Shown piece by piece: positions 10,850 through 38,265 of a DNA stretch of 45,474 nt. Positions within the stretch are counted from its first letter, which is position 1; the number at the start of each line of letters is the position of its first letter. The position numbers and the translations under genes are program-made. Location of the stretch: contig JAUXUN010000050.1 of the NCBI GenBank assembly GCA_030680855.1, positions 1 through 45,474 on the forward strand, given 5' to 3'. The stretch is from Aestuariivirga sp. GTDB taxonomy: Bacteria > Pseudomonadota > Alphaproteobacteria > Rhizobiales > Aestuariivirgaceae. Under the pieces are notes generated by a model, which did no database searches, was not told the DNA's origin, and saw nothing but the letters and a program-made list of their open reading frames with translations.

Positions 10850-10992
10850 CCTCGCCCTCGCGGATAGCGGGGGAGAGGTGTCTGCGAAGCAGACGGAGAG
10901 GGGGTGCCGGCCGTTGAGTCTCCGGCCAGCGCCCCCTCTCCGTCACGGGCTTTGCCCGCGCCACCTCTCCCCCAATTGCATTGGGGGCGAGG
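10850..10992. repeat. 143-bp nested palindromic (cruciform) repeat
   Basis: Nested inverted repeats fold the whole element into one long hairpin. The outer arms are CCTCGCCC and GGGCGAGG, the middle arms GGGGAGAGGTG and CACCTCTCCCC, and the inner arms GAGAGGGGG and CCCCCTCTC. Side hairpins lie between them (for example GTCTGC/GCAGAC). It encodes no protein. Elements of this form are dispersed intergenic repeats (MITE- or REP-like) in many Rhizobiales. A relative with different arms is at 18373-18502. Confidence 0.7.
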
Positions 10993-11195
10993 ATGAAGTG
11001 CGATTCACGTATCAATCAGCATCAGGCACAGCTTCGCCCTTGGTGAAAACGGTTATGCCGTTTCCGGGATAGAGAAGCGAAGGGTTGCGTGGACGCAAAC
11101 ACTCGCAGAAAAGCCGGTCGTGTAGTCCGGCGGTTGGCGCTTGCTCGCGCCCACGCTTTTGCGGCGGTTTTTGCCTCGGGGAAGAACTTGCAGAG

Positions 11196-11329
11196 CCCTA
11201 GATCGCACGGTGTCTGAGGTTTTCCGCTAGGGTTGTTTAGCCATTTAAGGCGCATGGACCGTAATATCCACGGGCCTTCCCTCCGGCTCCCGGGTGCCTG
11301 ATGAACGTTTCACCAGACCCGCAGGCGCC
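11196..11329. other. Structured region, possible non-coding RNA or leader (unassigned)
   Basis: Several stems nest here. GGCGC (11249-11253) pairs with GCGCC (11325-11329). Inside are ACCGT/ACGG around AATATCC, and a long stem from CGGGTGCCTGATGAA (11291-11305) with TTCACCAGACCCG (11309-11321) around a 3-nt loop. Outside, CCCTAG (11196-11201) pairs with CTAGGG (11227-11232). The fold works on either strand because it is palindromic. The minus strand is favoured because a TTGACA element lies upstream at 11412-11417. I compared it by eye with 6S RNA, RNase P, SRP RNA, tmRNA and common riboswitch motifs and found no convincing match. Confidence 0.35.
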
Positions 11330-11379
11330 ACATCCCCCCCATCACAGCCACCGTCGCGACCGAGACCCCTTCCGGGATG

Positions 11380-11415
11380 GACAGATAATTCCTAGTATAT
11401 AGGAATATATCTGTC
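11380..11415. promoter_or_regulatory. 36-bp near-perfect palindrome overlapping a TTGACA box
   Basis: GACAGATA-ATTCCTA (11380-11394), a 5-nt centre GTATA, then TAGGAAT-A-TATCTGTC (11400-11415). Only one extra A breaks the symmetry. A minus-strand TTGACA overlaps it (11417 to 11412), so it looks like an operator controlling transcription into the structured region; no good -10 was found at 17 nt. The remaining DNA from 10717 to 11583 has no gene that I can support. Confidence 0.55.
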
Positions 11416-11583
11416 AAGGGGATTTATTCATATTTTTTCTTTCGCCCGTGCCTGCCCAGAGATCAGAGGGAGCGAGTCCGGCGGAATGAACCCTTAATGA
11501 ACCTCCCTCTCAGGCAACGTTCAAATTCGATTCTGCATGCTCGCCTCCAAGTTGGGGCATTTTTTATGAGAAGGACTATTCAC

Positions 11584-12894
11584 ATGCCGAATCTTCGTCT
11601 TCTTAAAATTGCACTGCCGCTGGCAGGATTGGCCCTTTCGGCGCAGAACGCCAATGCGCAGTGGCCAAAATTTGACCACATCACGCTCACCCCCACGGGC
11701 ATTCCGCCGTTGCTTGTCGTTGAATCAGAAAACGGTTCGTCGTGGACGAAACTCAAGTCCTCGAACTTCCTCCTGTCCGGCATCGTGGACATCAAGATGG
11801 ACAAGGGAAAAGTCACGACATTCACGATAACCCATGGCTCAAAGAAAGTCCTGCCCTATGTAGGTGAAGCCGTGAACGGACCGAAGCACCTCAAGACCGA
11901 GGTTTCCTTTCAGTCATCCACCGGCAATCTCGGGATCGCCGCGCTCATGGCAATCAACGCGTGCAATGCCAAGCTCAAGACAGGGGCGGAGATTTACAGC
12001 GAACAGCATGCTCTGGTTACGACAGACCTCACACTGTCGGCGACTGCAAGCACGAACAAGCACACATTGACGCGTGACGGTTTTGGTTCCTTTCCATTGA
12101 GATTGAAATGCCTCGCCGTGCCGATCACCCAGGACGTTGTTCAGCCTGATCCCGCGCCGCCGGCTACCGATGTGAACGACTTAAAGCCGGGGCAGAAGTT
12201 CAAGGTGCGTTCGGCAGCGCTCGGCATCCACAAGCCGCAGTCCAACGTGTGCCCGACGACGGCGCAGATCAACGCCCGGTTTGAGACGAATTTCGACGGC
12301 AAGGTCACCTTCATCTACCGGCAGGCGGGCGGCGGCAAGTCCGCACCCATCACGGTGACATCGAAGAAAACGCCGAATGGAAAATTCATGGCCGTGCACA
12401 ACCAGGTTGTCGATATCAAGAAGGCCATGAACACGAAATACATGGTTGAAGTTGTTGGCAAGGGCATCATCTCGGACTGGAAAAGCCTGAATGTGACGTG
12501 CAAGATCGGCCTTGGCGGCGGCGGCGAAATTGCCAATCCGCCGGCGGTTCCCTTCAAGGTGTTGAGCGCGCAGCTTGGCATCAAGGGACCGAAGACCAAG
12601 GTTTGCCCGAACAAGGCAACGGTCATGGCATGGTTCAAGACGAACAAGCCAGGCAACGTGGGCTTCCGGCTGATGCGCGGGGATGGACCGGTTGGCCCGA
12701 TGATTTTTGTGCCATCAGTCAAGTCGGCGTCCGGCTACATGGCGACCTATTCCAAGACCATCCCGATCATCAACAGCATCAACACAAGCTATTCAGCAGT
12801 TGTTCCGGGCCAGGGTGGGCTGGCGAGCAATTTTGTGCCGCTGAAGGCAAGCTGCGCAGTTGGACTGCCCGGCGGTTTGGCCAAAAAACCATAG
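11584..12894 (+). CDS. Secreted repeat protein of unknown function
   Basis: A 436-residue exported protein starting at ATG 11584 with AGAAGGA 8 nt upstream; an ATG 18 nt earlier is possible. The signal peptide ends near NANA-QW (about residue 24). After a unique domain of about 180 residues come two homologous units of about 100 residues (near 205-305 and 330-432). Unit one begins FKVRSAALGIHKPQSNVCP and unit two FKVLSAQLGIKGPKTKVCP; each ends with a cysteine after a conserved beta strand (LNVTC, LKASC), so each may carry one disulfide. The repeats look like beta-sandwich binding modules. No family recognised; an extracellular or periplasmic role is inferred. Confidence 0.7.
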   Translation: MPNLRLLKIALPLAGLALSAQNANAQWPKFDHITLTPTGIPPLLVVESENGSSWTKLKSSNFLLSGIVDIKMDKGKVTTFTITHGSKKVLPYVGEAVNGPKHLKTEVSFQSSTGNLGIAALMAINACNAKLKTGAEIYSEQHALVTTDLTLSATASTNKHTLTRDGFGSFPLRLKCLAVPITQDVVQPDPAPPATDVNDLKPGQKFKVRSAALGIHKPQSNVCPTTAQINARFETNFDGKVTFIYRQAGGGKSAPITVTSKKTPNGKFMAVHNQVVDIKKAMNTKYMVEVVGKGIISDWKSLNVTCKIGLGGGGEIANPPAVPFKVLSAQLGIKGPKTKVCPNKATVMAWFKTNKPGNVGFRLMRGDGPVGPMIFVPSVKSASGYMATYSKTIPIINSINTSYSAVVPGQGGLASNFVPLKASCAVGLPGGLAKKP

Positions 12895-12953
12895 CGACAG
12901 GAGGGCAGGCGCGGTTTTTCCTCTTCCGTGCCTGCCGAAGTCCGCAACACATG

Positions 12954-14285
12954 CTAAACATCCAAAAAAATGGTGCGGAGGATTTCAGGCTTCCTTTCCA
13001 GTTCACGAAACATATAGACCAGCACGCGGCATCCAAAGTCAGTCTCAAATATGTCTTTTGCCTTGTAAAACCTCTTGCGCTCGGCCTTGGACAAGTTTGC
13101 AACAAAACGTTTCACAATCCTCTCGGCCTCGCGGTCTGCAAGACGCCTCTGTTTCTTTGTTGCCTTTGCCGGGGCCAGGGCTTTTCCGGAAAGCGCGGTT
13201 TCGAGTGCCTTGCCGTAAAAATCGACCAAATCATTTCGAAATGACTCGGGGCCATAGCTGATTGCTTCCTGCAACTGTTTCTCGAATATCGTTTTGTCTT
13301 TCAGGATTCGTTTGCAGAACAGCTTGTCCTTCCTGCTTCCCGCCTCAATAACCTCAATGGCGAAGAGATCGACAAACTCCACGATGTGGACAGAAGTCAT
13401 GGCGTCCAGCAACTTCTTGTCGAGCTGATCCGGAAGCTTCATGGATATGTAGGCATCGAACAGGGCAAGGGTCCAGCTTCTGCCGGAAGACTGATTGAGC
13501 GCGACTTCATCCACAAGCGCCTTGTAGGTTGCGGGATAGCTTTCCTTCATCAATGACATGAAGCGCTGCTTGAGCAGCGCCGTCTCCACCTCGTTTCGCA
13601 GCAATGGAGGCGCCTCCAGCAGCGGTGAAGGGGGGATCGGCACAAGCGAGATTTGCGTTGAGGAGTGGCTTGCGAGCCCCCCCGGGGAGACCCAAGTGAC
13701 ATCTATCCCGAGGAACCGCGCGTCGTTGGGCGTGAGCCAGCGCATCCGGCGGGGAGCCGCCTCGATGGCGTAAGCGGCGACCATTTCGCTGAATCCCAGT
13801 TTTTTCAGGATATAGCCGACGTAGGTGTTGGCTTCCGGGGATGGCTTTTCGTCGTGGCCTGGATCGAAAGCGGAGTGGAAACCTACTTGCGCGCTGCCTT
13901 CGATTGACCGCTGTTTGCCGCCCAGCCACATAATGCCGCAAGCCGAGGCGCAAGTGTTGCCGCTGCGTACGGTGGTGCTGAAGTTCTTCTGGCTTATAAG
14001 TTCAGCGATCCTCAAGCCATCGGCCAAACTGCCGCCATGACTTGAAAATGTGATCTCCGCTGTTTGGTACTTTGACGCAGCTTTGCTGAAGCGATCAAAA
14101 TCGCCGGCTACTACCTCCCCAACAAATGCAATTTCGACTTTCTTGCCCTTCTTATGGACGGTGACTTCGGCTGAAGTTGCCTCGCCCGCCAGCACTCCCA
14201 TCTGCGCGACGATCAGCGCAAGAAACATCGCAAAGCGGCGCAGTCCGGGGCGGGCATGAACCAGGATTTCGATGAGCATGGACAT
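12954..14285 (-). CDS. Exported ClpP/crotonase-fold protein (periplasmic ClpP-like)
   Basis: A 443-residue protein. The N-terminal membrane segment or signal peptide (about 17-39) ends near EATSAE. Residues about 40-200 have the ClpP-like core: ITFSSHGGSLADGLRIAELI (79-98) as the oxyanion strand-turn, the nucleophile elbow NTCASACGIMW with Ser114 flanked by Cys112 and Cys116, and GFHSAF with His137. This matches COG3904-type predicted periplasmic proteins related to ClpP. Residues about 220-440 are a helical, charged domain with no known family. The start at 14285 is supported by GGAGGAAGG just upstream; the frame extends further but without a better site. Confidence 0.68.
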   Translation of the reverse strand: MSMLIEILVHARPGLRRFAMFLALIVAQMGVLAGEATSAEVTVHKKGKKVEIAFVGEVVAGDFDRFSKAASKYQTAEITFSSHGGSLADGLRIAELISQKNFSTTVRSGNTCASACGIMWLGGKQRSIEGSAQVGFHSAFDPGHDEKPSPEANTYVGYILKKLGFSEMVAAYAIEAAPRRMRWLTPNDARFLGIDVTWVSPGGLASHSSTQISLVPIPPSPLLEAPPLLRNEVETALLKQRFMSLMKESYPATYKALVDEVALNQSSGRSWTLALFDAYISMKLPDQLDKKLLDAMTSVHIVEFVDLFAIEVIEAGSRKDKLFCKRILKDKTIFEKQLQEAISYGPESFRNDLVDFYGKALETALSGKALAPAKATKKQRRLADREAERIVKRFVANLSKAERKRFYKAKDIFETDFGCRVLVYMFRELERKPEILRTIFLDV

Positions 14286-28297: not shown

Positions 28298-29143
28298 TCA
28301 GTTGTGCTGCTTCGGAGTTTCGCTTTTCCCGGCGAGCCGTCTTCCCCGCCTCTCGAGCAACTGGACCGCCAGCAGCAGCAAGGCGGACAGCACGATCAGC
28401 AGCGTGGCCACTGCCGCGATGCCCGGGCTTACATATTCCCGCACCCCGCTGAAAATCTGCCGGGGCAAGGTGCGCTGCGTCGGTGCTGCCAGAAACAGGG
28501 TTACGACGATTTCATCGAAAGACGTGACGAATGCAAACAGGCCGCCAGACGCAATGCCGGGAAAGATGATGGGCAATGTCACGCGCCGGAAGGTCTTCAC
28601 GGGCGGCGCGCCCAGCGTTGCCGCGGCGCGCAGCAGGTTGTTGTCAAAGCCTTCGAGCGAAGCCAGAACCGTGATGACGACGAAGGGCACGGCGAGCACC
28701 GTGTGCGCCAGGATGAGCCCGAGATAGGTGCCGCTCAGGCCAATACCGGCGAAATGGAAATACATGCCGACGGCGGTGATCACGATCGGGATCAGCAATG
28801 GCGAGAGGATGACACCGATGATGGCGGGTTTCAGCGCGAAATTCATCCGCGAGAGGCCCGTGGCCGCAAGGGTGCCCAGGGCCATGGCAAGCGCGGTGGA
28901 TGAAAGCCCGATAAAAAGGCTGTTTTTCGCCGCATCGATCCACGCATCGCCTCTGAGGATATTCTGATACCATCGCAGCGACAGGCCGGGGAACGGAAAG
29001 ACGAGCAGATTGCCGGCGGTAAACGACATCGGAATGATGACGAAGATTGGCAGGACGAGAAAGCCGAGCACGACAAAGCAGACGCCGCGGGACAGGATGT
29101 ACCAGAAGCGGTCCTCGGCGGATGCGTGATGGGGCAGGCTCAT
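28298..29143 (-). CDS. ABC transporter permease, PotC-like
   Basis: A 281-residue inner-membrane permease with six predicted helices and the cytoplasmic EAA-type loop AAATLGAPPVKTFRRVTLP (about 190-208). The family is the spermidine/putrescine/2-aminoethylphosphonate type; the N-terminus (VIIPMSFTAGNLLVFPFP) is characteristic. It begins 3 bp after the PotB-like gene and pairs with it. No ATP-binding subunit gene is found in the window. Confidence 0.88.
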   Translation of the reverse strand: MSLPHHASAEDRFWYILSRGVCFVVLGFLVLPIFVIIPMSFTAGNLLVFPFPGLSLRWYQNILRGDAWIDAAKNSLFIGLSSTALAMALGTLAATGLSRMNFALKPAIIGVILSPLLIPIVITAVGMYFHFAGIGLSGTYLGLILAHTVLAVPFVVITVLASLEGFDNNLLRAAATLGAPPVKTFRRVTLPIIFPGIASGGLFAFVTSFDEIVVTLFLAAPTQRTLPRQIFSGVREYVSPGIAAVATLLIVLSALLLLAVQLLERRGRRLAGKSETPKQHN

Positions 29144-29146
29144 GTG

Positions 29147-30412
29147 CTACCTCATGAAATGGCTGAGTTTCACCAGCCTGCTGAACAGAACGAGCAGGAT
29201 GATGGTTGTGACAAGCAGCATGAGGCCGAGCGCCGAGGCCATACCCCAGTTGACCACCTCGTTGACATGATAAGTAATCATGTAGCTGAGCATCTGGTCG
29301 CGCGGACCGCCGACCAGCGCCGGCGTGATGTAATAGCCGAGCGCCAGTATGAAAACGAACATGAGGCCGGCACCGATTCCAGGCATGGTCTGCGGCAGGT
29401 AAACCCGCAGGAAGGCAATGCGCCGGTTTGCCCCCAATGAATGCGCAGCCCGCATGTGGCTCTCGGGGACCGACTTCATCACGCTGTAAAGCGGAAGGAT
29501 CATGTAGGGCAGAAGCACATGGGACATCGCCACGAGAGTTCCAAAGCGGTTGAATATCAGTTCCAGCGGCCGCTGGATGATGCCCGCGAATTGCAGCAAG
29601 CCATTCAGCGGGCCATTGCCCTGCAGGATGATGATCCAGGCCGTGGTCCGCACCAGAAGAGATGTCCAGAACGGCAGCAACACGGCGATCATCAGAATCC
29701 CGGCGATGAAGGGCGAAAGCCTTGTCAGCACATAGGCGGTGGGATAGCCGAGCAGCAGGCAAATGACAGCAACGGTCAGGCTGATCTCAAAGGTTCTGAA
29801 GAGGAGTGGAATGTAAAGGCGCTGTTCCGGCGGCTGCCGGATGATTTGGCCATCACGATCCTGTTTCAAATCGCCCGCCGCCAGCACGAACGCGGCGGTG
29901 AGCGGGCCTGTCTGGTATTTGAGGACGGCCCAATAGTCAGGGTCAAGCCAGCGCTTGTCGATCTCAACCAGAGTTTCCTTCCATGAGGGCGGCGCTTCAT
30001 CCGGCAGGCGGTTTGCCGTTTTCATGAGCAGGCTGCGGAAACCTTCCTCGAAATTGTTGAGGTTGCGGGCAATGACCGCCAATTCGCTTGAGCCGGGAAT
30101 TGCTTTTAGGTCAGCCACCAGCGCCGCGTAGGCCGCATCGGGAACATCGGCTGGCGAGATCCAGTACTCAAGCGCTGCATTGGTCTGGGGGAAGCTGCGG
30201 TGCAACAGGCCGTTGTCAACCGAACGGTACATGAACAGCAGGATGGGCACGATAAAGGCAAACACGAGCAGGGCCATCAGCGGCAGGACGAGAACCGAAT
30301 TGCGGAGCGCGCTCAGGCGCTGCGAACGGCGGACGGACTTCCGGACGCCGTTTGCATCGCGCAGGGCCGCGGCGGGGCTTTTGGCTGCAGGGCTGGTTCT
30401 CTCAAATTGCAT
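29147..30412 (-). CDS. ABC transporter permease, PotB-like with periplasmic insertion
   Basis: A 421-residue permease, longer than the usual PotB of about 280-310. After the first helix (about 40-60) comes a periplasmic loop of about 130 residues (roughly 66-198), then five helices. The EAA motif is AAHSLGANRRIAFLRVYLP (about 320-338). It partners the PotC-like gene. The likely substrate is a cationic amine or amino acid derivative. The ATG at 30412 has no visible ribosome site, and a GTGATCAC operator lies just 12 nt upstream, so the transcript may be leaderless. Confidence 0.87.
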   Translation of the reverse strand: MQFERTSPAAKSPAAALRDANGVRKSVRRSQRLSALRNSVLVLPLMALLVFAFIVPILLFMYRSVDNGLLHRSFPQTNAALEYWISPADVPDAAYAALVADLKAIPGSSELAVIARNLNNFEEGFRSLLMKTANRLPDEAPPSWKETLVEIDKRWLDPDYWAVLKYQTGPLTAAFVLAAGDLKQDRDGQIIRQPPEQRLYIPLLFRTFEISLTVAVICLLLGYPTAYVLTRLSPFIAGILMIAVLLPFWTSLLVRTTAWIIILQGNGPLNGLLQFAGIIQRPLELIFNRFGTLVAMSHVLLPYMILPLYSVMKSVPESHMRAAHSLGANRRIAFLRVYLPQTMPGIGAGLMFVFILALGYYITPALVGGPRDQMLSYMITYHVNEVVNWGMASALGLMLLVTTIILLVLFSRLVKLSHFMR

Positions 30413-30421
30413 TTGCGTTTT

Positions 30422-30432
30422 TTGTGATCACT
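30422..30432. promoter_or_regulatory. GntR-type operator, first copy
   Basis: TTGTGATCACT, with the 8-bp palindrome GTGATCAC at 30424-30431, lies between the PotB-like start (30412) and the regulator start (30493). The same core occurs in a perfect 18-bp palindrome at 33765-33782. It resembles FadR/VanR-type operators and probably binds the adjacent regulator. Confidence 0.6.
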
Positions 30433-30492
30433 CATTACAAGCAGCTAGGCTTCATTCACCAGAAGCGGGCTAACGGACGGGCAAATCAATAA

Positions 30493-31197
30493 ATGTCAGC
30501 ATTATCGCGCAAAATTCAGCATGTTTCTGATGAATCCGAGTCGGGGTTCGATGTTCCAAAGCTCAGCCGTAGCACGCTGAATGAAGAAGTCTATGAGCAG
30601 CTCAAGCAAGCGCTCATCTCCGGGAAAATAGCCCCGGGTTCCACCATGACGATCCGTTCGCTTGCCAGTTCCTTCGGCATCAGCGTGATGCCGGTGCGCG
30701 AGGCGCTGCGCCGGCTGGTTGCCGAGCACGTGCTGACGCTTCTGCCAAACCGCAGTGTCTCCCTGCCGGTGTTCACCCGCGAACGCTTCAACGAGATCAC
30801 GCGCATCCGCACCTCGCTCGAAGGCCTGGCCGCGGAGGAGGGTGCGCGCCACGTGACTCCCAAAATGCTGACCCACATGACTCATTTGACGAGCCTGATG
30901 GAGGCCAAGACGGCAGTCAGCCATACGGACACTTTGGCGTGGAACCGCGAGTTCCATTTCACGCTTTATACCGCCTCTAAGATGCCCACCCTGGTCAAGA
31001 TGATTGAATCGCTGTGGCTTCAGGCCGGCCCCTTGCTGCACCTGCAGCAGCGCGTCTTCGCCGCGCAGAAGCAACCGGTCTATGTGCAGCACCATCGCGC
31101 CATTCAGGCGATCAAATCCGGCAAGCCGGCCCAGGTGCGCGATGCAATCGTGGGCGACATCGAAGACGCCGCTGAAATCATCAGCGCGGCCCTGTAG
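30493..31197 (+). CDS. GntR-family regulator, FadR/FCD subfamily
   Basis: A 234-residue repressor or activator. The winged helix at about 26-92 reads EEVYEQLKQALISGKIAPGS, IRSLASSFGISVMPVREALR, then VLTLLPNRSVSLPVF. The C-terminal FCD ligand domain (about 100-225) has the typical histidine in WNREFHFTLYTASKMP and later HHRAIQAIKSG, which usually bind a metal and an organic acid. It is divergent from the permeases and convergent with the aminotransferase. The palindromes at 30424 and 33765 are likely its sites. The effector is probably the imported compound or a keto-acid intermediate. Confidence 0.9.
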   Translation: MSALSRKIQHVSDESESGFDVPKLSRSTLNEEVYEQLKQALISGKIAPGSTMTIRSLASSFGISVMPVREALRRLVAEHVLTLLPNRSVSLPVFTRERFNEITRIRTSLEGLAAEEGARHVTPKMLTHMTHLTSLMEAKTAVSHTDTLAWNREFHFTLYTASKMPTLVKMIESLWLQAGPLLHLQQRVFAAQKQPVYVQHHRAIQAIKSGKPAQVRDAIVGDIEDAAEIISAAL

Positions 31198-31202
31198 CGT
31201 CG

Positions 31203-32564
31203 TCATCGGTTGAATACGGCTTTGAACAGGTTTTTCCGGCTCACTAGGAATTCATCCACCGCAGCTGCAAGCTTGTCCGTTTCCGCTTCGGTCGTTTCAA
31301 CCGACAGGTTTCCCATGATGCGGCGGGCGATATAGATGCCGCCGTCGATCATATCGAGGTGAAACAGTTTTTTGAGGTCGGCCATTTCACCCTCGCGGCC
31401 TTCTTCACAGCGATCAAGGTCGTCGATGTTGCGCAGCGTTCCCTCATGAAAATGAATGCCAAAGATCGATCCAAACCCCGTGACAACCATCGGCAGCGCG
31501 TGTTTGGAGGCAAGGCCGTTGAGTTTCACCCGCAGCCGGTCGCCAAGCTCGTTCATGCGGTCGGACGCCTCCTGGGTGAGAATTTTGCTCAGCGCCACGT
31601 AGCCGGCAGACATGGCCACCACATTGTTATTGAAGGTGCCGCCGTGCGGGAATGCTCCTGGCTTTGACGGATCAAACCGACGCATGATGCCGGCTCGCCC
31701 GCCAAACGCGCCGATGGTGAGGCCGCCTGCAATGTATTTGCCAAGTGTTACGAGGTCGGGCTTCACGCCGAAATGCGCCTGCAACCCGCCGAAATGAACC
31801 CGCGATGTCATGACTTCATCGAAAATCAGCAGCACACCATGCTGTTCGGTTGCTTCGCGAAGCGCTGCGATAAAGGCGGGTGTGGCGGGCAAGGCACCGG
31901 CTCCGCCCTGCATGGGCTCAACGATCACGGCGGCAAGCTTGCCCGCGTGCCTGGCAATGTCGGAAGCCGCTTTTTCGGGATCATTGAACGTTGAGGTGAT
32001 AACCGGGAATGGCATGTTGAGCGGCGAGGGCCCGTGGCTGAAATAGAAGATGCTGCCATGGTAGGCGCCATTGAAGATCATGATGGCGTCCTTGCCGGAC
32101 ACTGCCCGAGCCGTGGCCATGGCGAGAAGGTTTGCCTCGGTGCCGGAATTGCAGAAGCGCAAAAGCTCCATGGCGGGAAAACGCTTCCGCAATTCTCCGG
32201 AAAGCTTCACTTCATGCTCGGTTGGCGCGCCGAAATTCAGGCCCTGTGCGATTGTCCGGGAAATTGTCTCGGCAATGAGGGCGTTGGAATGACCGAAGAC
32301 CCCGGCGGTGTATTCATTGATGAAGTCGATATAGCTGTGGCCGTCAACATCGGTAAGCCGACTTCCTTCACCTTTGGCGATATAGAGGGGAAATGGCGAG
32401 TAATGCACCGTGGTCCGCGTATTGCCGCCGGGCAAATGACCTTGGGCTTCTTCGCTGAGTTTTGCGCTGCGAGGATTGGCCGCCACGTAGCGGGCTTCCG
32501 CATCGCGCAGCACGGACGGCAGTTCCTCGTTTCGCAACGCATGCGCCAAGGCTGAATGTGTCAT
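31203..32564 (-). CDS. Class III aminotransferase, beta-amino-acid (VpAT/GSA) type
   Basis: A 453-residue PLP enzyme. The Schiff-base lysine is Lys276 in TLGKYIAGG, Asp249 in LIFDEVMTSR holds the pyridine nitrogen, and YHG (168-170) stacks on the cofactor. Segments such as FINEYTAGVFGHS, NSGTEANLLA and GTFNNNVVAMSAGY are very like the Variovorax beta-phenylalanine aminotransferase as I remember it, including the Arg (Arg50 in GGNTRTTV) that binds the beta-amino-acid carboxylate there. It is therefore more likely to convert a beta-amino acid to a beta-keto acid than to make aminolevulinate. The start at 32564 follows GGAG. It lies downstream of the binding-protein gene on the same strand. Confidence 0.87.
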   Translation of the reverse strand: MTHSALAHALRNEELPSVLRDAEARYVAANPRSAKLSEEAQGHLPGGNTRTTVHYSPFPLYIAKGEGSRLTDVDGHSYIDFINEYTAGVFGHSNALIAETISRTIAQGLNFGAPTEHEVKLSGELRKRFPAMELLRFCNSGTEANLLAMATARAVSGKDAIMIFNGAYHGSIFYFSHGPSPLNMPFPVITSTFNDPEKAASDIARHAGKLAAVIVEPMQGGAGALPATPAFIAALREATEQHGVLLIFDEVMTSRVHFGGLQAHFGVKPDLVTLGKYIAGGLTIGAFGGRAGIMRRFDPSKPGAFPHGGTFNNNVVAMSAGYVALSKILTQEASDRMNELGDRLRVKLNGLASKHALPMVVTGFGSIFGIHFHEGTLRNIDDLDRCEEGREGEMADLKKLFHLDMIDGGIYIARRIMGNLSVETTEAETDKLAAAVDEFLVSRKNLFKAVFNR

Positions 32565-32637
32565 GGATACTCCATCTGACGGCGGGAGAACGCAAACGGC
32601 GGGCAGCCATGATGGATGCCCGCCCGGATGCTGATGG

Positions 32638-33693
32638 TTACTGGGAAACCCAGGTATTAAAGCGTTCAGTCGCCTTAGACTGTTGGTCGACCCAGTACTC
32701 GTCACTATAGACTGCAGCCGATGCGGCCTTGTCGGGCGCTGTCGGCAGTGAGTCCCTGATCTCCTGAGACATGAGGTCATAGGCAGCGAGTGTGGGCACA
32801 CCATAGGAGAGATGCTTCACAAGCTCCGCCTGGGTTTCAGGCTTTGCATAGAAGGCAAGCAGCTTCTGAGCTGCCGCGGGATTTGGCCCCTTGGCGATTT
32901 TCACCCAATAGTCAGTGCCGACCCAGAAGCCTGAGCTCCAGCCGATGACAAGGTTGCGCTTGTTTTCCTTTGCAGCTCCCGTGACGCGGGCATTGAAGTT
33001 GATGTTCATAGCCACGTCACCCGCAAGCAAACGCTGCATGCCGTCAGCAGCGCTCTCCGACCAGAGAATGTGCGGCTTCAGCTCATCGAGCTTCTTGAAG
33101 GCCCGGTCAAAGCCTTCCGGCGAACGGAGCACGTCATAGATTTCTTCCTTTTTAACGCCATCGGCCATGAGCGCTATTTCGATCATGATGCGCGCATCCT
33201 TGTAGCAGCCGCGCTTGCCCGGCCACTTGGCCACATCCCAAAACTCCGCCCAGGACTTTGGTCCGTCCGTGATCTTGTCGCCGTCATAGGCCATCACCGT
33301 GGCCCAGATATCTGAAGCGATGCCGCAGTCATGGGCCGCATAGCCGATCTGCTTGTCGCGGCCGCCCAATGCGTCCCAGTCAAGCTTCTCGAAGATGCCT
33401 TCGTCGCAGCCCTGGATCACCTGGGGGCTTTCGAAGGGGACCACATCCCAAACGATTTTGCCCGCTTCCACCTGGCTGGTGATCTTGGCGTATTCACCGC
33501 CGAATTCCTCTTCGACGATCTTGATCCCGGTTTCCTTCATGAATGGCTCGAAAAGCGCCTTGCGGTAGGCATCCTGCCAGACGCCACCCCAGCCCACGAC
33601 AACAACCTGTTCCTGGGCGGATGCGTTGCTTGCGGCGAACATGGCAATGCCCGCGCCGAGCAATAACGGTTTCAGATAGGACAATACCTTCAT
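32638..33693 (-). CDS. Periplasmic solute-binding protein, PotD/polyamine type
   Basis: A 351-residue exported binding protein. The signal peptide ends near SNASA-QE (about 27). The mature start VVVVGWGGVWQDAYRKA and the segments VVPFESPQVIQGC, MAYDGDKITDGPKSWAEFWD and AGDVAMNINFNARV are those of the spermidine/putrescine/amine group. It would deliver substrate to the PotB/PotC-like permeases, which are encoded separately beyond the aminotransferase and regulator genes. The ribosome site GGGAGAG precedes the start. The aminotransferase gene follows 73 bp downstream, probably on one transcript. Confidence 0.9.
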   Translation of the reverse strand: MKVLSYLKPLLLGAGIAMFAASNASAQEQVVVVGWGGVWQDAYRKALFEPFMKETGIKIVEEEFGGEYAKITSQVEAGKIVWDVVPFESPQVIQGCDEGIFEKLDWDALGGRDKQIGYAAHDCGIASDIWATVMAYDGDKITDGPKSWAEFWDVAKWPGKRGCYKDARIMIEIALMADGVKKEEIYDVLRSPEGFDRAFKKLDELKPHILWSESAADGMQRLLAGDVAMNINFNARVTGAAKENKRNLVIGWSSGFWVGTDYWVKIAKGPNPAAAQKLLAFYAKPETQAELVKHLSYGVPTLAAYDLMSQEIRDSLPTAPDKAASAAVYSDEYWVDQQSKATERFNTWVSQ

Positions 33694-33741
33694 TCCACTC
33701 TCCCTCATTTGGTTCGCAAAGAGGCTGCCTCTTCGCCGCCA

Positions 33742-33782
33742 TTGACAGTTTATCAACTGCTGTTAGCTTGTGATCACAAGCT
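33742..33782. promoter_or_regulatory. Divergent promoter with perfect 18-bp GntR-type palindrome
   Basis: AGCTTGTGATCACAAGCT (33765-33782) is a perfect palindrome in the 148-bp gap between the binding-protein gene and the BKACE gene. A plus-strand TTGACA at 33742-33747 would place the operator over the -10 region, suiting repression. Its GTGATCAC core repeats at 30424-30431 beside the regulator gene. Confidence 0.7.
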
Positions 33783-33841
33783 CTGTGATGTTAGACTTAA
33801 CTTTAATGGCTTGTCAAACAAACGTGAAGCGGGAGGGCGTA

Positions 33842-34804
33842 ATGGCGGAAGAAACGGTTTCGGCAGCAAAATCAAAGGCCAGAAAGGTGATCATTACATG
33901 CGCGGTCACGGGCTCCGTCCACACCCCAAGCATGACGCCCTATCTGCCGATCACGCCCGACGAAATCGCCCGGGAATCGATTGCTGCCGCTGAAGCCGGC
34001 GCCTCTGTCATTCATCTGCACGCACGCGATCCCAAAACGGGGCAGCCTACGCCTGACCCGGCGGTCTTCATGCAATTCCTGCCGCGCATCAAGCAAAACT
34101 GCGATGCCGTCATCAACATCACCACCGGCGGCTCCCTGGGCATGAGCATCGAGGACAGGCTAGCGGCCCCGCTTCTGGCCCAGCCCGAACTCTGTTCGCT
34201 CAACATGGGATCCATGAACTTCGGCATTTTCCATGCCGGGGCAAAGATCAAGGAATGGAAATTCGATTGGGAAAAACCCTATATCGAGAAGACGCGCGAC
34301 ACCGTCGTTCCTAACACCTTTGCCCAGATTGAATCCTTCATCGAGCGGCTCGGCAAGGGTTGCGGCACGCGCTTTGAATGCGAATGCTATGATGTTGGCC
34401 ATCTCTACACGCTGGCCTATTACCTGGACCGCAAACTGCTGGAACCGCCACTCTTCGTGCAGACGATATTCGGCGTCATGGGTGGCATCGGTGCCCATCC
34501 GGAAGATCTCATGCACATGCGCCGCACCGCCGACCGGCTGTTCGGCTCTGACTATCAATGGTCGATTCTGGCGGCTGGACGGCACCAGATGAACATGATC
34601 ACCATTGGCGCCACCATGGGCGGCAATGTGCGCGTGGGGCTCGAGGACAGCATCTATCTGGGGGCAGGCACCCTTGCCAAGAGCAACGCCGAACAGGTGG
34701 CCAAGATCAGGCGCATTCTCATGGAATTGTCGCTGGATGTGGCAACCCCTCAGGAAGCGCGCCAGATGCTGAAGCTGAAGGGTGGTGACCGTGTCGCTTT
34801 CTGA
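33842..34804 (+). CDS. BKACE-family beta-keto acid cleavage enzyme (DUF849)
   Basis: A 320-residue metal-dependent enzyme. BKACE enzymes react a beta-keto acid with acetyl-CoA to give acetoacetate and a new acyl-CoA. The zinc ligands His58 and His60 lie in VIHLHARDP, and the third, by analogy with Kce, is Glu268 in VRVGLEDS. The TTGGSLG loop (94-100) and SLNMGSMNFG are typical. The start at 33842 is set by GGGAGG 5 nt upstream; an ATG at 33770 is inside the operator. The thioesterase gene begins 2 bp after its stop, so the acyl-CoA product is probably hydrolysed at once. Confidence 0.92.
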   Translation: MAEETVSAAKSKARKVIITCAVTGSVHTPSMTPYLPITPDEIARESIAAAEAGASVIHLHARDPKTGQPTPDPAVFMQFLPRIKQNCDAVINITTGGSLGMSIEDRLAAPLLAQPELCSLNMGSMNFGIFHAGAKIKEWKFDWEKPYIEKTRDTVVPNTFAQIESFIERLGKGCGTRFECECYDVGHLYTLAYYLDRKLLEPPLFVQTIFGVMGGIGAHPEDLMHMRRTADRLFGSDYQWSILAAGRHQMNMITIGATMGGNVRVGLEDSIYLGAGTLAKSNAEQVAKIRRILMELSLDVATPQEARQMLKLKGGDRVAF

Positions 34805-34806
34805 CA

Positions 34807-35262
34807 ATGGCTGAGGCCGGCCCCATGCGCTCCTTGAAGACGGTCGAAACATTTCGCGGCGTTGCCTATCCATGGTTGTGTGATTCCATGGGCCATATGA
34901 ACACGCAGCATTATTGCGCCCTGTTCGACGGCGCAACGTTTCACTACCTGGCGCTGATGGGCGGCCCGCGGCACTTGAAGGAAAGCCGGCGCGGCTGGGT
35001 CGACGCAAAGCAGACCATCGAATACCGCCGGGAAATCCTGTCGGGTGACCTGCTGGTGATCTCCACCGCCATGACCCGTGTTGGCCGCTCGTCGCTTGGC
35101 TTCCGCCATGAACTGGTTGACCTGGAGGACGGCGCCTTGCGCGCCACCAGCGATCATGTGGTGGTTCACTTCGATCTCGACAAGCGCGCATCCTTGACGC
35201 TTCCTGATGCAGTGGTGGCAAAGGCAAGAGAGTATCTCGATGACGACAGCAACACGGAGTGA
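34807..35262 (+). CDS. Hot-dog acyl-CoA thioesterase
   Basis: A 151-residue 4HBT-type thioesterase. The N-terminal segment WLCDSMGHMNTQHYCALFD has the catalytic Asp26 and the H-M-N turn (30-32) of 4-hydroxybenzoyl-CoA thioesterases. It is next to the BKACE gene as cdhB-type betainyl-CoA thioesterases are in carnitine operons, and likely releases the free acid from the acyl-CoA made by BKACE. Its end overlaps the FAD gene start by 23 bp, indicating coupled translation. Confidence 0.87.
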   Translation: MAEAGPMRSLKTVETFRGVAYPWLCDSMGHMNTQHYCALFDGATFHYLALMGGPRHLKESRRGWVDAKQTIEYRREILSGDLLVISTAMTRVGRSSLGFRHELVDLEDGALRATSDHVVVHFDLDKRASLTLPDAVVAKAREYLDDDSNTE

Positions 35263-36664
35263 GGGGCGCTGCCTCTGGCTGCGCCAGGCGATCCAGCCGG
35301 GCGAGGTGGATGCGCCCGTCCTCGAAGGAAATCAAACCGCCGATATCTGCATCGTTGGCGGGGGACTGGCCGGCTTGTGGACAGCGCTTGACCTCAAGGA
35401 GCGCGATCCGTCCTGCGATGTGGCAATCATTGAGGCCGATATCTGCGGCGGCGGGGCATCGGGACGGAACTCCGGCATGGTGCTGTCGCAATGGGCCAAG
35501 TTTGCGGCGCTGAAAGCCTTCTGTGGTGAGGCAGGCGCCATTGCCCTGGGCCACGCCTTTGCCGCGTCGGCGGGAAACATCGAGCGCTTTTGCAAGGCCA
35601 ATGGCATTGATGCGGAGATCCGCCCGGATGGCTGGATATGGGGCGCCACCTGCCAAAAGCATGTGGGATCATGGAACGGCATTCTGGAAAACCTGGAAAG
35701 CAGCGGGCTGCATCCCTTCACCCGTGTGACGGGCGCGGAGATCAGGGCGCTCTGCGGCACTGACCGATTCCTTGCGGGCATCCATGACCCCACTGCCGCA
35801 ACGCTTCATCCCGGCAAACTGGTGCGCGGCCTGCGCCGCGCTGCCTTGGCCAGGGGCATTCGCATTTTCGAGAATTCGCGGATGGTTAAGCTGGAGCGGC
35901 AAAATCCCGCGGTTGTCAAAACGCCCAAGGGGATGATGCGGTCACCGGTCTGCATCCTCACATTAAATGCCTGGTCAACATCCGTGCCCGAACTTCGCCC
36001 GTCGATCCTGGTGATTGCCAGCGATGACTCCGTAACCGAGCCGGCACCAGAACTCCTCGAAAAAATGGGTTATCTGCGGCGCCCCCTGATGGGTGACAGC
36101 CAAACTTTCGTGACGGGATTCAGGACCACCGCCGATCACCGCTTTCAACCCGGAATCACCGGCGGCATCATTGGATTTGGCAGCCTCGGCACCAACCGTT
36201 TCGAAGGCCGCTCGATACGCGAGGCCGATATCCGGGACTGCGTCAGCCGCGGCTTCCCGGCCTTCGCCGATCTGCCCTATGCCGACAGCTGGTGCGGGCC
36301 GATTGACCGCACACGCAGCGGCTTGCCACTCTTTGGCCCGTTGCCTGGCGCACCAAACATTTTCTATGGATTTGGCTTTTCCGGAAATGGCGTGGCGACG
36401 ACCCCGGTGACGGCGAAGATTCTCGCGAGCCTTGCCCTTGGCAAGAATGATGAATGGTCATCCTGCGGGCTTGTGCGGCCACCCGAAAGGTGGCTGCCAC
36501 CGGAGCCCATCCGTTACATCGGCGCCCACATGGTGCGCCAAGCAATCCGCCGCAAGGACCGGCTCGAACAGGAAAACCGCGTTCCCGGCCCCGTGGTCCG
36601 CGCCCTGGCTGCCATGGCGCCGGGAGGCATCACGACATCAACTATTGTCAGCCCCAGGAGGTGA
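35240..36664 (+). CDS. FAD-dependent amine/amino acid oxidoreductase (DAO family)
   Basis: A 474-residue flavoprotein. The dinucleotide-binding motif IVGGGLAGLWTAL is at 38-50, and the second flavin segment GGGASGRNSGM at 70-80. The late GFGFSGNGVATTPVTAKI motif is typical of DadA/PuuB-like oxidases. It would oxidise a secondary or primary amine, for example an N-substituted amino acid or a gamma-glutamyl-putrescine-like compound. The start at 35240 lies within the thioesterase gene. AGGAGG near its end serves the cupin gene. The substrate is not given by the sequence. Confidence 0.85.
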   Translation: MTTATRSEGRCLWLRQAIQPGEVDAPVLEGNQTADICIVGGGLAGLWTALDLKERDPSCDVAIIEADICGGGASGRNSGMVLSQWAKFAALKAFCGEAGAIALGHAFAASAGNIERFCKANGIDAEIRPDGWIWGATCQKHVGSWNGILENLESSGLHPFTRVTGAEIRALCGTDRFLAGIHDPTAATLHPGKLVRGLRRAALARGIRIFENSRMVKLERQNPAVVKTPKGMMRSPVCILTLNAWSTSVPELRPSILVIASDDSVTEPAPELLEKMGYLRRPLMGDSQTFVTGFRTTADHRFQPGITGGIIGFGSLGTNRFEGRSIREADIRDCVSRGFPAFADLPYADSWCGPIDRTRSGLPLFGPLPGAPNIFYGFGFSGNGVATTPVTAKILASLALGKNDEWSSCGLVRPPERWLPPEPIRYIGAHMVRQAIRRKDRLEQENRVPGPVVRALAAMAPGGITTSTIVSPRR

Positions 36665-36666
36665 TC

Positions 36667-37032
36667 ATGCCCGAAGCCAAATTGTTCAAACGCGCCGAAC
36701 TTCCGTTCAAGGATTGCATAACGCCGTCAGGCGTAACCCAGACCGCCCGGACCATCACCGCCAGCATCAGCAAACAGATGGGCGGCGGCATGGAGATCGG
36801 CGAAGATGTCTGCATTCACTGGACAACGCTCTATGACGAAATCCTTTTTATCCATAAGGGCACGATGATCGTGCGCACCAGCGCCGGCGAACTGGAATGC
36901 CACCCCGGGGATATTGTTTGGTTGCCCGAGGGCGTGACCCTCGACTATGACATGACCGGCAGGCGCTGCGAATACTTCTATTCGCTCTGCCCCATTGACT
37001 GGGCCAAGCGAAACAACATGGAAGAGCCATAG
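36667..37032 (+). CDS. EutQ-like cupin protein
   Basis: A 121-residue cupin of the ethanolamine-utilisation EutQ-like group. The core is TTLYDEILFIHKGTMIV, then LECHPGDIVWLPEGVTLDYD. The first motif lacks the usual two histidines (it has YDEILFIHKG), so metal binding may be weak or absent. It starts 2 bp after the FAD oxidoreductase stop, with AGGAGG overlapping that stop, so it is the last gene of the BKACE operon. The role is unknown; EutQ-type cupins accompany amine catabolism. Confidence 0.82.
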   Translation: MPEAKLFKRAELPFKDCITPSGVTQTARTITASISKQMGGGMEIGEDVCIHWTTLYDEILFIHKGTMIVRTSAGELECHPGDIVWLPEGVTLDYDMTGRRCEYFYSLCPIDWAKRNNMEEP

Positions 37033-37071
37033 TTTAGAAATCTTCTGCCTTGTTGATAGACTGGCTGCACA

Positions 37072-37102
37072 CCGGCCTCAGGAATGAAACCTGAAGGTCC
37101 GG
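37072..37102 (+). terminator. Imperfect hairpin after the BKACE operon
   Basis: CCGGCCTCAGG and CCTGAAGGTCCGG pair with two bulges around AATGAAA, 40 nt after the cupin stop. No T-run follows. A possible Rho-assisted end of the operon. Confidence 0.4.
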
Positions 37103-37239
37103 CAATTAACCTTGCATTAATCGTTAAATTGAAATTCCCGGCGCCCCTTGAAGTTCCCGTCAAATGGAACCTTTCTTTTATGACTTCTTTCTACTTTGCC
37201 GCAGAGGCCGAGCTATAGCCTCAAACCAGAGGATTAGTT

Positions 37240-38265
37240 GTGGCAAGCTTAGACGAACCGGGAACAGTCGAGGAAAACGCAATCGAATTCCTGGGAATCC
37301 GCCGCATTACGGCGGACGAGCTCGGTATCAAACGCTCAAAAAATGGCGCGAGTTTTTCCTACATCGACGACGGCAAGCGCAACATTTCCCGGACCAATTT
37401 GAAAAGAATTGCCGAGCTAGTCATTCCACCGGCGTGGTCGAATGTCCGCATTGCGACTGAAAAAGACGCGCATTTGCAGGCAGTGGGAAGAGATGCTGCG
37501 GGACGTTTACAATATATTTACCATCCTGAATGGGTTGAAGTCAGGGCTGCCGCGAAGGCATTCCGGCTAACTCAAATAGGGAGCGTGGTGGGCCGGCTGC
37601 GAACCTGCATAAAGCGCGACTTGGCCGATGGCACAGAGAACATGCCCCTGGCGGCCGCGGCCCGTATCGTCGACCTGCTGCATCTGCGCGCGGGCCATGA
37701 AGCCTATGCGGGCGACGAGGGCGGAAGAGGGGTCTCGACCCTGCTGAAGCGCCACCTGAAAATGGACAGCGATGGTTTTCATCTGGCATTCCGGGGCAAG
37801 GGCGGTAAGCACATCGACAAAAGTTGTGACGATCCATTACTCATCGCTGCCTTGAAGGAACTCCGCGCTTATCCAGGCGCCCGGCTCTTTAAACTGATAT
37901 CAAGCGATGGGTTCCGGCCCATGACGGCGGGAGACCTCAATCAATACCTTGCCGAAAGCTCCGGCAAGCCCATCACCGCAAAAGACTTTCGAACCTTGTT
38001 TGCGTCATCGGTAGCGCTGAATGAGTTCCAGAGTTTGGAAGCCCCAAGCACAACGGCTGCAGCACGGCGCGCAGTCGCGGCCGTCGCGCGGAAAATCAGC
38101 GCAGAGCTTGCGAACACACCAGCAGTGACCAGAAAAAGCTACATTCATCCCAGGATCATTGAAAGTTTCGAAAAGGGCGAGCTTGAGCATGCTGGGGACG
38201 CTCCAAGAAAGCGCAACCTGAGTTTGGCAGAGTCGAATCTCATGCAGTTTCTGCACACCACCTGA
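37240..38265 (+). CDS. DNA topoisomerase IB (poxvirus-type)
   Basis: A 341-residue type IB topoisomerase that relaxes supercoils through a 3'-phosphotyrosine intermediate. Catalytic residues by motif are Arg150 in LHLRAGHEAY, Lys187 in FRGKGGK, Arg251 in AKDFRTLFAS and Tyr301 in TRKSYIHP. The N-terminal part (about 15-105) is the DNA-binding lobe (IPPAWSNVRIA, YIYHPEW). It starts at GTG 37240 with AGAGGA before it. RxGNE-type motif deviation (RAGHEA) is the only oddity. It stands alone, not with Ku or ligase genes. Confidence 0.9.
   Translation: MASLDEPGTVEENAIEFLGIRRITADELGIKRSKNGASFSYIDDGKRNISRTNLKRIAELVIPPAWSNVRIATEKDAHLQAVGRDAAGRLQYIYHPEWVEVRAAAKAFRLTQIGSVVGRLRTCIKRDLADGTENMPLAAAARIVDLLHLRAGHEAYAGDEGGRGVSTLLKRHLKMDSDGFHLAFRGKGGKHIDKSCDDPLLIAALKELRAYPGARLFKLISSDGFRPMTAGDLNQYLAESSGKPITAKDFRTLFASSVALNEFQSLEAPSTTAAARRAVAAVARKISAELANTPAVTRKSYIHPRIIESFEKGELEHAGDAPRKRNLSLAESNLMQFLHTT

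What the first reader, a model, noticed from the sequence alone, without database searches (positions are those of the whole stretch)
30493..37032. Possible undescribed beta-amino acid or amine catabolic pathway built on BKACE
Seen: a VpAT-like aminotransferase (Lys276, Arg50), a BKACE enzyme (His58, His60, Glu268), a thioesterase, a DAO-type FAD enzyme and an EutQ-like cupin, beside a PotD/PotB/PotC-like importer and a GntR regulator. Known: VpAT-type enzymes turn beta-amino acids into beta-keto acids, and BKACE cleaves beta-keto acids with acetyl-CoA. Inferred: the two steps join into one route whose acyl-CoA product is released by the thioesterase, with the FAD enzyme dealkylating or deaminating the substrate first. 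The known carnitine route uses a dehydrogenase that is absent from this cluster, so the substrate is probably new.
Basis: partly seen in the sequence, partly recalled or inferred. Interest (0 to 1): 0.78.

Follow-up and report, generated by a model that had tools for sequence, protein, structure and literature searches.

The report
Beta-amino acid breakdown gene cluster (BKACE)
A bacterium carries a conserved, apparently jointly controlled set of nine genes that most likely imports an unusual beta-amino acid and cuts it into usable acids, a kind of breakdown whose natural enzymes are poorly known, although the exact food molecule is still unidentified.

Summary
The aminotransferase groups with VpAT/MesAT, not with glutamate-1-semialdehyde mutases (100/100); all 7 cluster copies keep R41, E75 and R398 (VpAT numbering). 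Anchored on the FAD gene, the cluster recurs in 7 other genomes: of 8 loci, BKACE, FAD enzyme, cupin and GntR are in 8, aminotransferase and thioesterase in 7 each. A GATC-centred palindrome lies in a divergent intergenic region of every one; TTGTGATCACAA occurs at one place in the held genome. A carnitine-type BKACE with a dehydrogenase lies elsewhere in this genome, so this is probably not the carnitine route. Most likely: beta-amino acid to beta-keto acid, to acyl-CoA plus acetoacetate, to free acid. I think the FAD enzyme makes the same beta-keto acid from the N-alkyl form, in parallel with the aminotransferase; that is inferred and less sure. The substrate is unknown. New variant of a known kind; it makes the reportedly uncertain fate of beta-keto acids testable.

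The parts
28298..29143 (-). PotC-like ABC permease
   Evidence: Pfam BPD_transp_1 56 bits; best NCBIfam PotC 185 bits, below cut-off 326; found in 6 of 8 cluster loci
29147..30412 (-). PotB-like ABC permease
   Evidence: Pfam BPD_transp_1 38 bits; best NCBIfam PotB 150 bits, below cut-off 348; found in 6 of 8 cluster loci
30422..30431 (.). Second, partial copy of the operator word (TTGTGATCAC) in the PotB/GntR divergent intergenic region
   Evidence: 3 matches (2 places) in the window; 0 of 100 shuffles had 3 or more; also in L110, not in L111
30493..31197 (+). GntR/FCD transcriptional regulator
   Evidence: Pfam GntR 65.9 and FCD 68 bits; 8 of 8 cluster loci
31203..32570 (-). Class III beta-transaminase (VpAT/MesAT type)
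   Evidence: (2yku 402 bits, 4ao9 374, best GSAM entry 233), tree, residues; 7 of 8 cluster loci
32638..33693 (-). PotD-like substrate-binding protein, nearer to GABA- and opine-binding proteins than to PotD
   Evidence: 4i1d 157 bits, 4eq7/4euo 144 (GABA role recalled), 5l9g MotA 136, 6hly agropine 135, 1poy PotD 48
33766..33781 (.). Candidate GntR operator GCTTGTGATCACAAGC in the SBP/BKACE divergent intergenic region
   Evidence: TTGTGATCACAA occurs at one place in the held 3.73 Mb genome; same 14-base core at the same place in L110, L111, L164
33842..34804 (+). BKACE (beta-keto acid cleavage enzyme)
   Evidence: Pfam PF05853 355 bits; NCBIfam NF053538 525 bits against cut-off 430; PDB 3e02, 3e49, 8rip; tree
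34822..35262 (+). 4HBT-type acyl-CoA thioesterase (could start at 34807)
   Evidence: Pfam 4HBT_2 69.5 bits; best NCBIfam is the C-terminal part of carnitine 3-dehydrogenase, 39 bits, below cut-off 592
35237..36664 (+). DAO-type FAD amine oxidoreductase
   Evidence: Pfam DAO 197 bits; TIGR03329 444 bits, below cut-off 633; 8 of 8 cluster loci
36667..37032 (+). EutQ-like small cupin
   Evidence: Pfam EutQ 41.7 bits against 21; nearest PDB 4axo; 8 of 8 cluster loci

Best explanation
A single-regulon catabolic cluster for a beta-amino acid. The Pot-type importer brings in the compound. The class III transaminase turns the primary beta-amine into a beta-keto acid. BKACE condenses this with acetyl-CoA, giving acetoacetate and an acyl-CoA two carbons shorter. 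The thioesterase frees that acid. Acetoacetate is recycled by enzymes encoded elsewhere. The GntR protein controls both divergent intergenic regions through a GATC-centred palindrome. The confidence below is for this core. Added to it, at about 0.35: the FAD amine oxidase makes the same beta-keto acid from the N-alkylated (for example N-methyl) form, which a transaminase cannot use. Shown by sequence: gene identities, catalytic residues, joint conservation, the shared palindrome. Inferred: every reaction in this organism, the FAD role, the operator function. Unknown: the side chain and the role of the cupin.
For: Transaminase clade and residues. BKACE family and catalytic residues. Gene set conserved in 8 loci across the class. 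Palindrome in 8 of 8 loci, at one place in the held own genome. Acetoacetyl-CoA synthetase in the genome, 920 bits against cut-off 521. A beta-alanine transaminase feeding a BKACE works in E. coli (PMC11961710, passages). For the FAD part: FAD enzymes in phosphonate operons oxidise the N-methyl amine that the local transaminase cannot use (PMC10590968, passages), and our FAD enzyme's best NCBIfam family is 'putative aminophosphonate oxidoreductase'.
Against: No substrate is known. The FAD enzyme fails the TIGR03329 cut-off in all 6 cluster copies scanned, and its likeness to the Pbf enzymes is by family name and Pfam domain, not by alignment. L161 has BKACE, thioesterase, FAD enzyme and cupin without the transaminase nearby (its genome has one 49% identical elsewhere), and L200 lacks the thioesterase. 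Most transaminases of this clade are not next to a BKACE: 5 of the 37 loci fetched from the 64 non-own rows have one, 2 of these being the cluster itself. The 10-base operator word also occurs inside genes (L164:4665, L112:17269). No ATPase gene for the importer was found among the proteins scanned at 28298-38265.
Confidence: 0.62

Rival explanations
1. Same core, but a sequential role of the FAD enzyme: it works on another amine of the molecule, either before transamination or on the amino acid that the thioesterase releases, for example a GABA-like product of an N-acyl beta-lysine.
For: The SBP is related to the GABA- and opine-binding proteins. Amide-hydrolase-like genes join some clusters: M20-type amidohydrolase in L162 and L163, two C45/AAT-type hydrolases in L200, a DMFA2_C-domain (dimethylformamidase-like) gene in L161, that is 4 of 8 loci. 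The tested BKACE of the same larger clade takes neutral side chains. Two rhizobial plasmids pair another aminotransferase and BKACE with a DMFA2_C gene, a GNAT acetyltransferase and a deacetylase (L106, L241).
Against: No such hydrolase among the proteins scanned at window 28298-38265, nor by tblastn with the L163, L200 and L106 genes in L110, L111 and L164 (L164 is only 8.3 kb). The FAD enzyme is in all 8 loci, these hydrolases in 4, and of three different kinds.
Confidence: 0.25
2. Quaternary-amine variant: 3-amino-4-trimethylammoniobutanoate (aminocarnitine) or a relative is transaminated to dehydrocarnitine, cleaved to betainyl-CoA and hydrolysed to glycine betaine, with the FAD enzyme demethylating the product.
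For: The thioesterase's best NCBIfam match is the thioesterase end of carnitine 3-dehydrogenase. An MttB methyltransferase homologue flanks the G004 cluster.
Against: The BKACE clade differs from that of the BKACE next to the carnitine-dehydrogenase-like gene of the same genome. The thioesterase match is weak (39 and 36 bits), and 3 of the 5 cluster thioesterases scanned have no NCBIfam match at 1e-6.
Confidence: 0.1
3. The genes share a locus but not a pathway: FAD enzyme plus cupin form one module, transaminase plus importer another, and BKACE plus thioesterase a third.
For: L161 holds BKACE, thioesterase, FAD enzyme and cupin without the transaminase or the Pot importer, beside a peptide-type importer.
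Against: Seven of eight loci keep genes of all three modules together although order and orientation differ between the two subclades, and a GATC-centred palindrome sits in a divergent intergenic region of each.
Confidence: 0.1

Closest known systems
Aerobic carnitine breakdown (carnitine 3-dehydrogenase, BKACE, betainyl-CoA thioesterase)
   Same: BKACE plus a 4HBT-type thioesterase acting after a beta-keto acid is formed.
   Different: The beta-keto acid is made by a dehydrogenase, not a transaminase. The own genome's candidate genes (C31, L113: BKACE plus a 492-aa dehydrogenase-thioesterase-like protein, 511 bits against cut-off 592) are separate, and that BKACE falls in another clade.
Lysine fermentation (Kdd, Kce/BKACE)
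   Same: BKACE chemistry on a beta-keto acid; a HemL-like beta-transaminase is known in one variant (PMC3149608, passages).
   Different: There the keto acid comes from a dehydrogenase and the transaminase acts later, on 3-aminobutyryl-CoA; the passages seen name no thioesterase, FAD amine oxidase or cupin.
Pseudomonas N6-acetyl-beta-lysine pathway (recalled; of the 3 papers listed none treats it, by title)
   Same: Transamination of a beta-amino acid, then CoA-dependent cleavage of the beta-keto acid.
   Different: Needs an acetyltransferase and a deacetylase, which were not found in the window cluster; L106 and L241 resemble it more.
Transaminase plus BKACE module of the CORE cycle (PMC11961710, passages)
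   Same: Beta-alanine transaminase feeding BKACE in E. coli.
   Different: Synthetic, different transaminase, substrate beta-alanine.
PbfB/C/D FAD oxidoreductases with transaminase PhnW in phosphonate operons (PMC10590968, passages)
   Same: FAD amine oxidoreductase (PF01266) beside a PLP transaminase, making the same carbonyl from the N-methyl form.
   Different: Substrate is an aminophosphonate. Our FAD enzyme does not reach the TIGR03329 cut-off and was not aligned with the Pbf enzymes.
VpAT and MesAT beta-phenylalanine transaminases (4ao9, 2yku)
   Same: Same large clade and key residues.
   Different: V43 of the ring pocket is T in the window copy (V in the second subclade). The Variovorax orthologue of VpAT in hand (L034) has no BKACE match in the 19-kb stretch.

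Membership tests
Beta-transaminase (VpAT/MesAT type) | R41, E75, Y76, catalytic K267, R398 (VpAT numbering; roles of R41, E75, V43, Y76 from PMC9850050, passages; K267 and R398 recalled) | tested here: met
   R52, E86, Y87, K278, R417 in the window copy; R41, E75, K267, R398 in 7 of 7 cluster copies; Y76 in 6 of 7 (F in L111)
Beta-transaminase (VpAT/MesAT type) | V43 in the ring pocket | tested here: not met
   T in 4 of 7 cluster copies including the window, V in 3 of 7; StoTA also has T there (T38) and transformed all the beta- and gamma-amino acids tested
Beta-transaminase (VpAT/MesAT type) | Branches with VpAT/MesAT rather than with GSA mutases | tested here: met
   41 rows with VpAT and MesAT apart from 16 GSAM-like rows, 100/100; 9 of 9 of those GSAM-like rows scanned pass the HemL cut-off
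Beta-transaminase (VpAT/MesAT type) | Activity on beta-amino acids | not testable with these tools
   needs assay
Glutamate-1-semialdehyde mutase (HemL) | Curated HemL score cut-off | tested here: not met
   280 bits against 527 (TIGR00713), like the VpAT orthologue L034 at 259; the genome has 5-aminolevulinate synthase, 630 bits against 339
BKACE (PF05853) | Pfam cut-off and catalytic residues His, His, Glu (recalled) and Tyr (PMC12871164, passages) | tested here: met
   355 bits against 24.8; H58, H60, E268, and Tyr183 aligned with the Tyr of the CYDxxH stretch of 8RIP
NF053538 3,5-dioxohexanoate:acetyl-CoA transferase | Curated cut-off 430 bits | tested here: met
   525 bits. The name does not settle the substrate: 4 of 6 BKACEs from other contexts also pass (L106, L107, L114, L242; not L109, L113), as do both other cluster copies scanned
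Carnitine breakdown cluster | Carnitine 3-dehydrogenase in the cluster | tested here: not met
   none among the ten proteins scanned at 28298-38265; a candidate lies on C31
TIGR03329 aminophosphonate oxidoreductase | Curated cut-off 632.8 bits | tested here: not met
   444 bits in the window, 438-478 in 5 other cluster copies
PotABCD polyamine importer | PotB, PotC and PotD score cut-offs | tested here: not met
   PotB 150/348, PotC 185/326, PotD 53/582
Acetylated beta-lysine pathway | Acetyltransferase and deacetylase in the cluster (recalled) | tested here: not met
   neither among the ten proteins scanned at 28298-38265; an M20-type amidohydrolase only in L162 and L163 of the 8 loci

The most novel reading that the evidence does not exclude
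A dedicated natural pathway for beta-amino acids and their N-alkyl forms, in which a PLP transaminase and an FAD amine oxidase converge on one beta-keto acid that BKACE and a thioesterase then turn into acetoacetate and a free acid: a natural counterpart of a module that, in the papers I found, was only built synthetically, for a substrate that none of my searches tied to BKACE.
Probability: 0.3. Interest if true: 0.68.

Novelty: new variant of a known kind. Interest (0 to 1): 0.55.

Why it matters
Beta-amino acids occur in antibiotics, toxins and compatible solutes (recalled), but their breakdown is little known. A 2018 paper states that the further fate of the beta-keto acid after transamination of beta-phenylalanine remains uncertain and that it decarboxylates spontaneously (PMC6150868, passages). 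A cluster that couples a beta-transaminase to BKACE would capture that unstable keto acid as useful carbon. It names genes for a direct test and a likely dedicated regulator and operator with which to look for the inducer. It could also suggest a physiological role for part of a BKACE clade whose crystallised member, P. denitrificans BKACE15, is said to be of unknown role, with a gene context hinting at aromatic breakdown (PMC11961710, passages).

Tried and rejected
GSA mutase reading: rejected by tree, residues and scores. Carnitine route: rejected for this cluster. Malonate semialdehyde (from beta-alanine) as the natural substrate: not excluded, but a thioesterase for formyl-CoA seems needless (inference). 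Aromatic beta-phenylalanine or beta-tyrosine: possible for transaminase and BKACE, but gives the FAD enzyme nothing to do (inference). Reading the substrate from the NCBIfam name of the BKACE: rejected, since BKACEs from other contexts pass the same model. Shared words of 12-18 bases (1-4 mismatches) between the two intergenic regions: none found in window, L110 or L111; a 10-base word is shared in window and L110. The second palindrome type (ATTTGATCAAAT) was noticed by eye and script and not tested against shuffles. Sigma-70 and terminator scans: counts no higher than in shuffles, so not used. Literature searches: none of the listed papers, judged by title and abstract start, describes this cluster; passages of ten papers were seen and none was read whole; subscription journals are mostly not held.
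Full report
What is there. Nine genes in window 28298-37032 appear to form four transcription units. PotB and PotC (-) run away from GntR (+) across an 80-base gap. GntR converges on the aminotransferase (5-base gap). SBP and aminotransferase (-) run away from BKACE-thioesterase-FAD enzyme-cupin (+) across a 148-base gap; these last four are at most 17 bases apart or overlap (coordinates with the starts used).

Aminotransferase. The nearest solved proteins are the beta-transaminase MesAT (402 bits) and VpAT (374); the best GSA mutase entry scores 233. In a 57-row tree the 7 cluster copies lie with VpAT and MesAT, apart from 16 GSAM-like rows at 100/100; 9 of 9 of those rows scanned pass the HemL cut-off, while the Variovorax orthologue of VpAT (259 bits) and our enzyme (280 bits) do not (527 needed). 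Within the transaminase group the cluster copies form two supported subclades that the tree does not join: window/L110/L111/L164, and L162/L163/L200. The second also takes in L124 and L184, which are not in this cluster. R41, E75, K267 and R398 (VpAT numbering) are kept in 7 of 7 cluster copies; the two GSA mutases compared have S at 41 and 75. The genome has a 5-aminolevulinate synthase over cut-off, so it does not need a GSA mutase for haem (inference).

BKACE. It passes Pfam and the NCBIfam model named for 3,5-dioxohexanoate (525 bits against 430), but so do 4 of 6 BKACEs from other contexts, so the name does not identify the substrate. The eight cluster BKACEs form one group with weak support (80/67) made of two strongly supported halves (100/99 and 100/98; the tree carries long-branch warnings for some outer rows). 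The carnitine-type BKACE of the same genome lies outside it. BKACE15 of Paracoccus denitrificans (8RIO/8RIP), in the same larger group, has confirmed neutral substrates such as beta-ketohexanoate and 3,5-dioxohexanoate and also acts on malonate semialdehyde (PMC11961710, passages). A paper summarising the 2014 BKACE survey lists separate groups for uncharged and for positively charged substrates (PMC4922564, passages); I did not assign our enzyme to those groups.

Carnitine. On contig C31 of the same genome a different BKACE is followed by a 492-aa protein matching carnitine 3-dehydrogenase over its whole length, thioesterase part included (511 bits, below the 592 cut-off), and an SDR. Carnitine therefore probably has its own locus.

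Conservation. I anchored on the FAD gene, a third party to the claim under test. Taking matches of at least 50% identity (a line drawn after seeing the hits: the weakest cluster row is 50%, the best non-cluster row is 49%), there were 3 besides the own genome in 397 order genomes (G127, G259, G362), 2 in 385 class genomes (G490, G584) and 2 in 37 genus genomes (G004, G009). In the order and class searches at most 4 candidates per genome were scored, so these may be undercounts. With the window that makes 8 loci (maps). BKACE, FAD enzyme, cupin and GntR: 8 of 8. Aminotransferase: 7 of 8 and SBP: 7 of 8 (both missing in L161, whose genome has a 49% identical aminotransferase elsewhere). PotB and PotC: 6 of 8 (missing in L161; beyond the contig end in L164). 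Thioesterase: 7 of 8 (missing in L200; for G362 seen whole in L236). Gene order and orientation differ between the two subclades.

Controls. One search gave 17 further FAD rows at 41-49% identity; I fetched 13 loci covering 15 of them (the two G799 rows were not fetched, and several stretches end at contig ends). One of 13 had a BKACE (L225), and none an aminotransferase match above 30% identity. From the aminotransferase side, one search gave 64 rows outside the own genome; I fetched 37 (the 36 best-scoring plus one lower row, G584:C1:114286, taken out of order). Five of 37 had any BKACE match: the cluster loci L164 and L200, plus L184 (34% identity, 21 bases downstream), L196 (34%, about 5 kb away) and L188 (29%, about 7 kb away, opposite strand). 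So the pairing belongs to this cluster and a few others and is not a general trait of the transaminase clade. In a phylum sample of 398, besides the own genome only G362 (51%) and G911 (45%; neighbourhood not examined) matched at 1e-125.

Regulation. The SBP/BKACE gap holds a perfect palindrome, GCTTGTGATCACAAGC (33766-33781). TTGTGATCACAA occurs at a single place in the held 3.73-Mb genome. The 14-base core is present without mismatch at the same place in L110, L111 and L164. The looser TTNTGATCANAA, over 3.07 Mb of fetched loci with many overlapping copies, hits 16 loci: 13 are re-fetches of these four places and 3 are unrelated (L053, L089, L091). A partial copy lies in the PotB/GntR gap (30422-30431; 3 matches at 2 places, 0 of 100 shuffles had 3 or more) and in L110, not in L111. 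The other four loci carry ATTTGATCAAAT without mismatch in the SBP/aminotransferase gap (L163, L200; in L162 it overlaps the first codons of the SBP ORF as called) or in the FAD/GntR gap (L161); this second type was not tested against shuffles. That GntR binds these sites is inferred.

Optional genes. L162 and L163 also carry a PotA-like ATPase and an M20-family amidohydrolase (62% and 67% identical between the two). The M20 protein of L163 passes the general amidohydrolase model and scores 288 bits against a cut-off of 550 for the ectoine-pathway deacetylase DoeB2. L200 carries two C45/AAT-type hydrolases and a ChaC homologue; L163 has a ChaC homologue about 5 kb from the cupin. L161 carries a DMFA2_C-domain gene (322 bits) and a peptide-type SBP. 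So 4 of 8 loci have some amide-hydrolase-like gene, which hints that some carriers take up an amide form. No importer ATPase was found in the window cluster, nor a PotA match in L110, L111, L164 or L200.

Mechanism. Steps from beta-amine to acetoacetate plus free acid follow from established chemistry of the named families; none was assayed for these proteins. A synthetic pair of beta-alanine transaminase and BKACE works in E. coli (PMC11961710, passages). Acetoacetate can be activated by an acetoacetyl-CoA synthetase elsewhere in the genome (920 bits). For the FAD enzyme I prefer a parallel role: in phosphonate operons, FAD oxidoreductases of the same Pfam family oxidise the N-methyl amine directly to the carbonyl that the transaminase makes from the primary amine, because PLP transaminases need a primary amine (PMC10590968, passages). 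Our enzyme's best NCBIfam family is 'putative aminophosphonate oxidoreductase', below cut-off in all 6 cluster copies scanned; I did not align it with the Pbf enzymes themselves. The cupin's role is unknown.

Substrate. The SBP is closer to GABA- and opine-binding proteins than to PotD, which suggests an amino acid rather than a polyamine. The BKACE group suggests a neutral side chain. The thioesterase is weakly nearest to the carnitine-dehydrogenase thioesterase end in the window and L111 copies (39 and 36 bits), with no NCBIfam match at 1e-6 in three others. These clues do not yet agree on one molecule.

Verdict. A real, conserved and apparently co-regulated cluster. I hold the core route (transaminase, BKACE, thioesterase, one regulon) at 0.62, the parallel FAD role at about 0.35, and the full N-alkyl beta-amino acid reading at 0.3.

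Noticed in passing
L106:5957-11462 (Pararhizobium qamdonense p3) and L241:1368-11562 (Sinorhizobium chiapasense pA): DMFA2_C-domain gene, another class III aminotransferase, BKACE, GNAT acetyltransferase (50% match in L241) and histone-deacetylase-family deacetylase; L241 adds a 4HBT thioesterase and an SBP_bac_3-type amino acid importer. Candidate genes for an acetylated beta-lysine breakdown route.
   Followed up: partly
L109 (Rhizobium sp. CB3060 plasmid) 7173-13095: BKACE, thioesterase, beta-transaminase, CoA-transferase A/B and thiolase side by side: a self-contained transaminase-BKACE route with a BKACE of another clade.
   Followed up: partly
L113 (own genome C31) 1073-4213: Probable carnitine locus: BKACE, dehydrogenase-thioesterase-like protein, SDR.
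   Followed up: yes
L114 (own genome C47) 5396-14120: Second BKACE of the same NCBIfam type beside what read as SBP, two permeases, an ABC ATPase and a DAO-like FAD gene: a second BKACE-importer-FAD association in this genome (the FAD gene and SBP by reading only).
   Followed up: no
L161:5363-7675: DMFA2_C-domain gene (322 bits) just upstream of GntR in the one cluster that lacks the transaminase; the same domain accompanies BKACE in L106 and L241.
   Followed up: partly
L111:87-3340 (left flank of the G004 cluster): MttB-family methyltransferase (634 bits), a Pyr_redox_2-type flavoprotein and a 156-aa ORF next to PotC; may bear on N-methyl substrates or be unrelated neighbours.
   Followed up: partly
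L184:2303-4522: Beta-transaminase and a BKACE of another clade 21 bases apart on one strand, near genes that read as a branched-chain-type importer.
   Followed up: partly
L124 (G040) 8984-10300: Aminotransferase of the second cluster subclade (with L162/L163) but no match to the other cluster genes in the 19-kb stretch.
   Followed up: no
window:27456-28172: 238-aa ORF, not scanned for family, next to PotC; a 78% identical stretch lies at L114:16679 beside the C47 importer.
   Followed up: no
window:37240-38265: Bacterial topoisomerase IB by Pfam just right of the cupin gene; probably outside the cluster.
   Followed up: no
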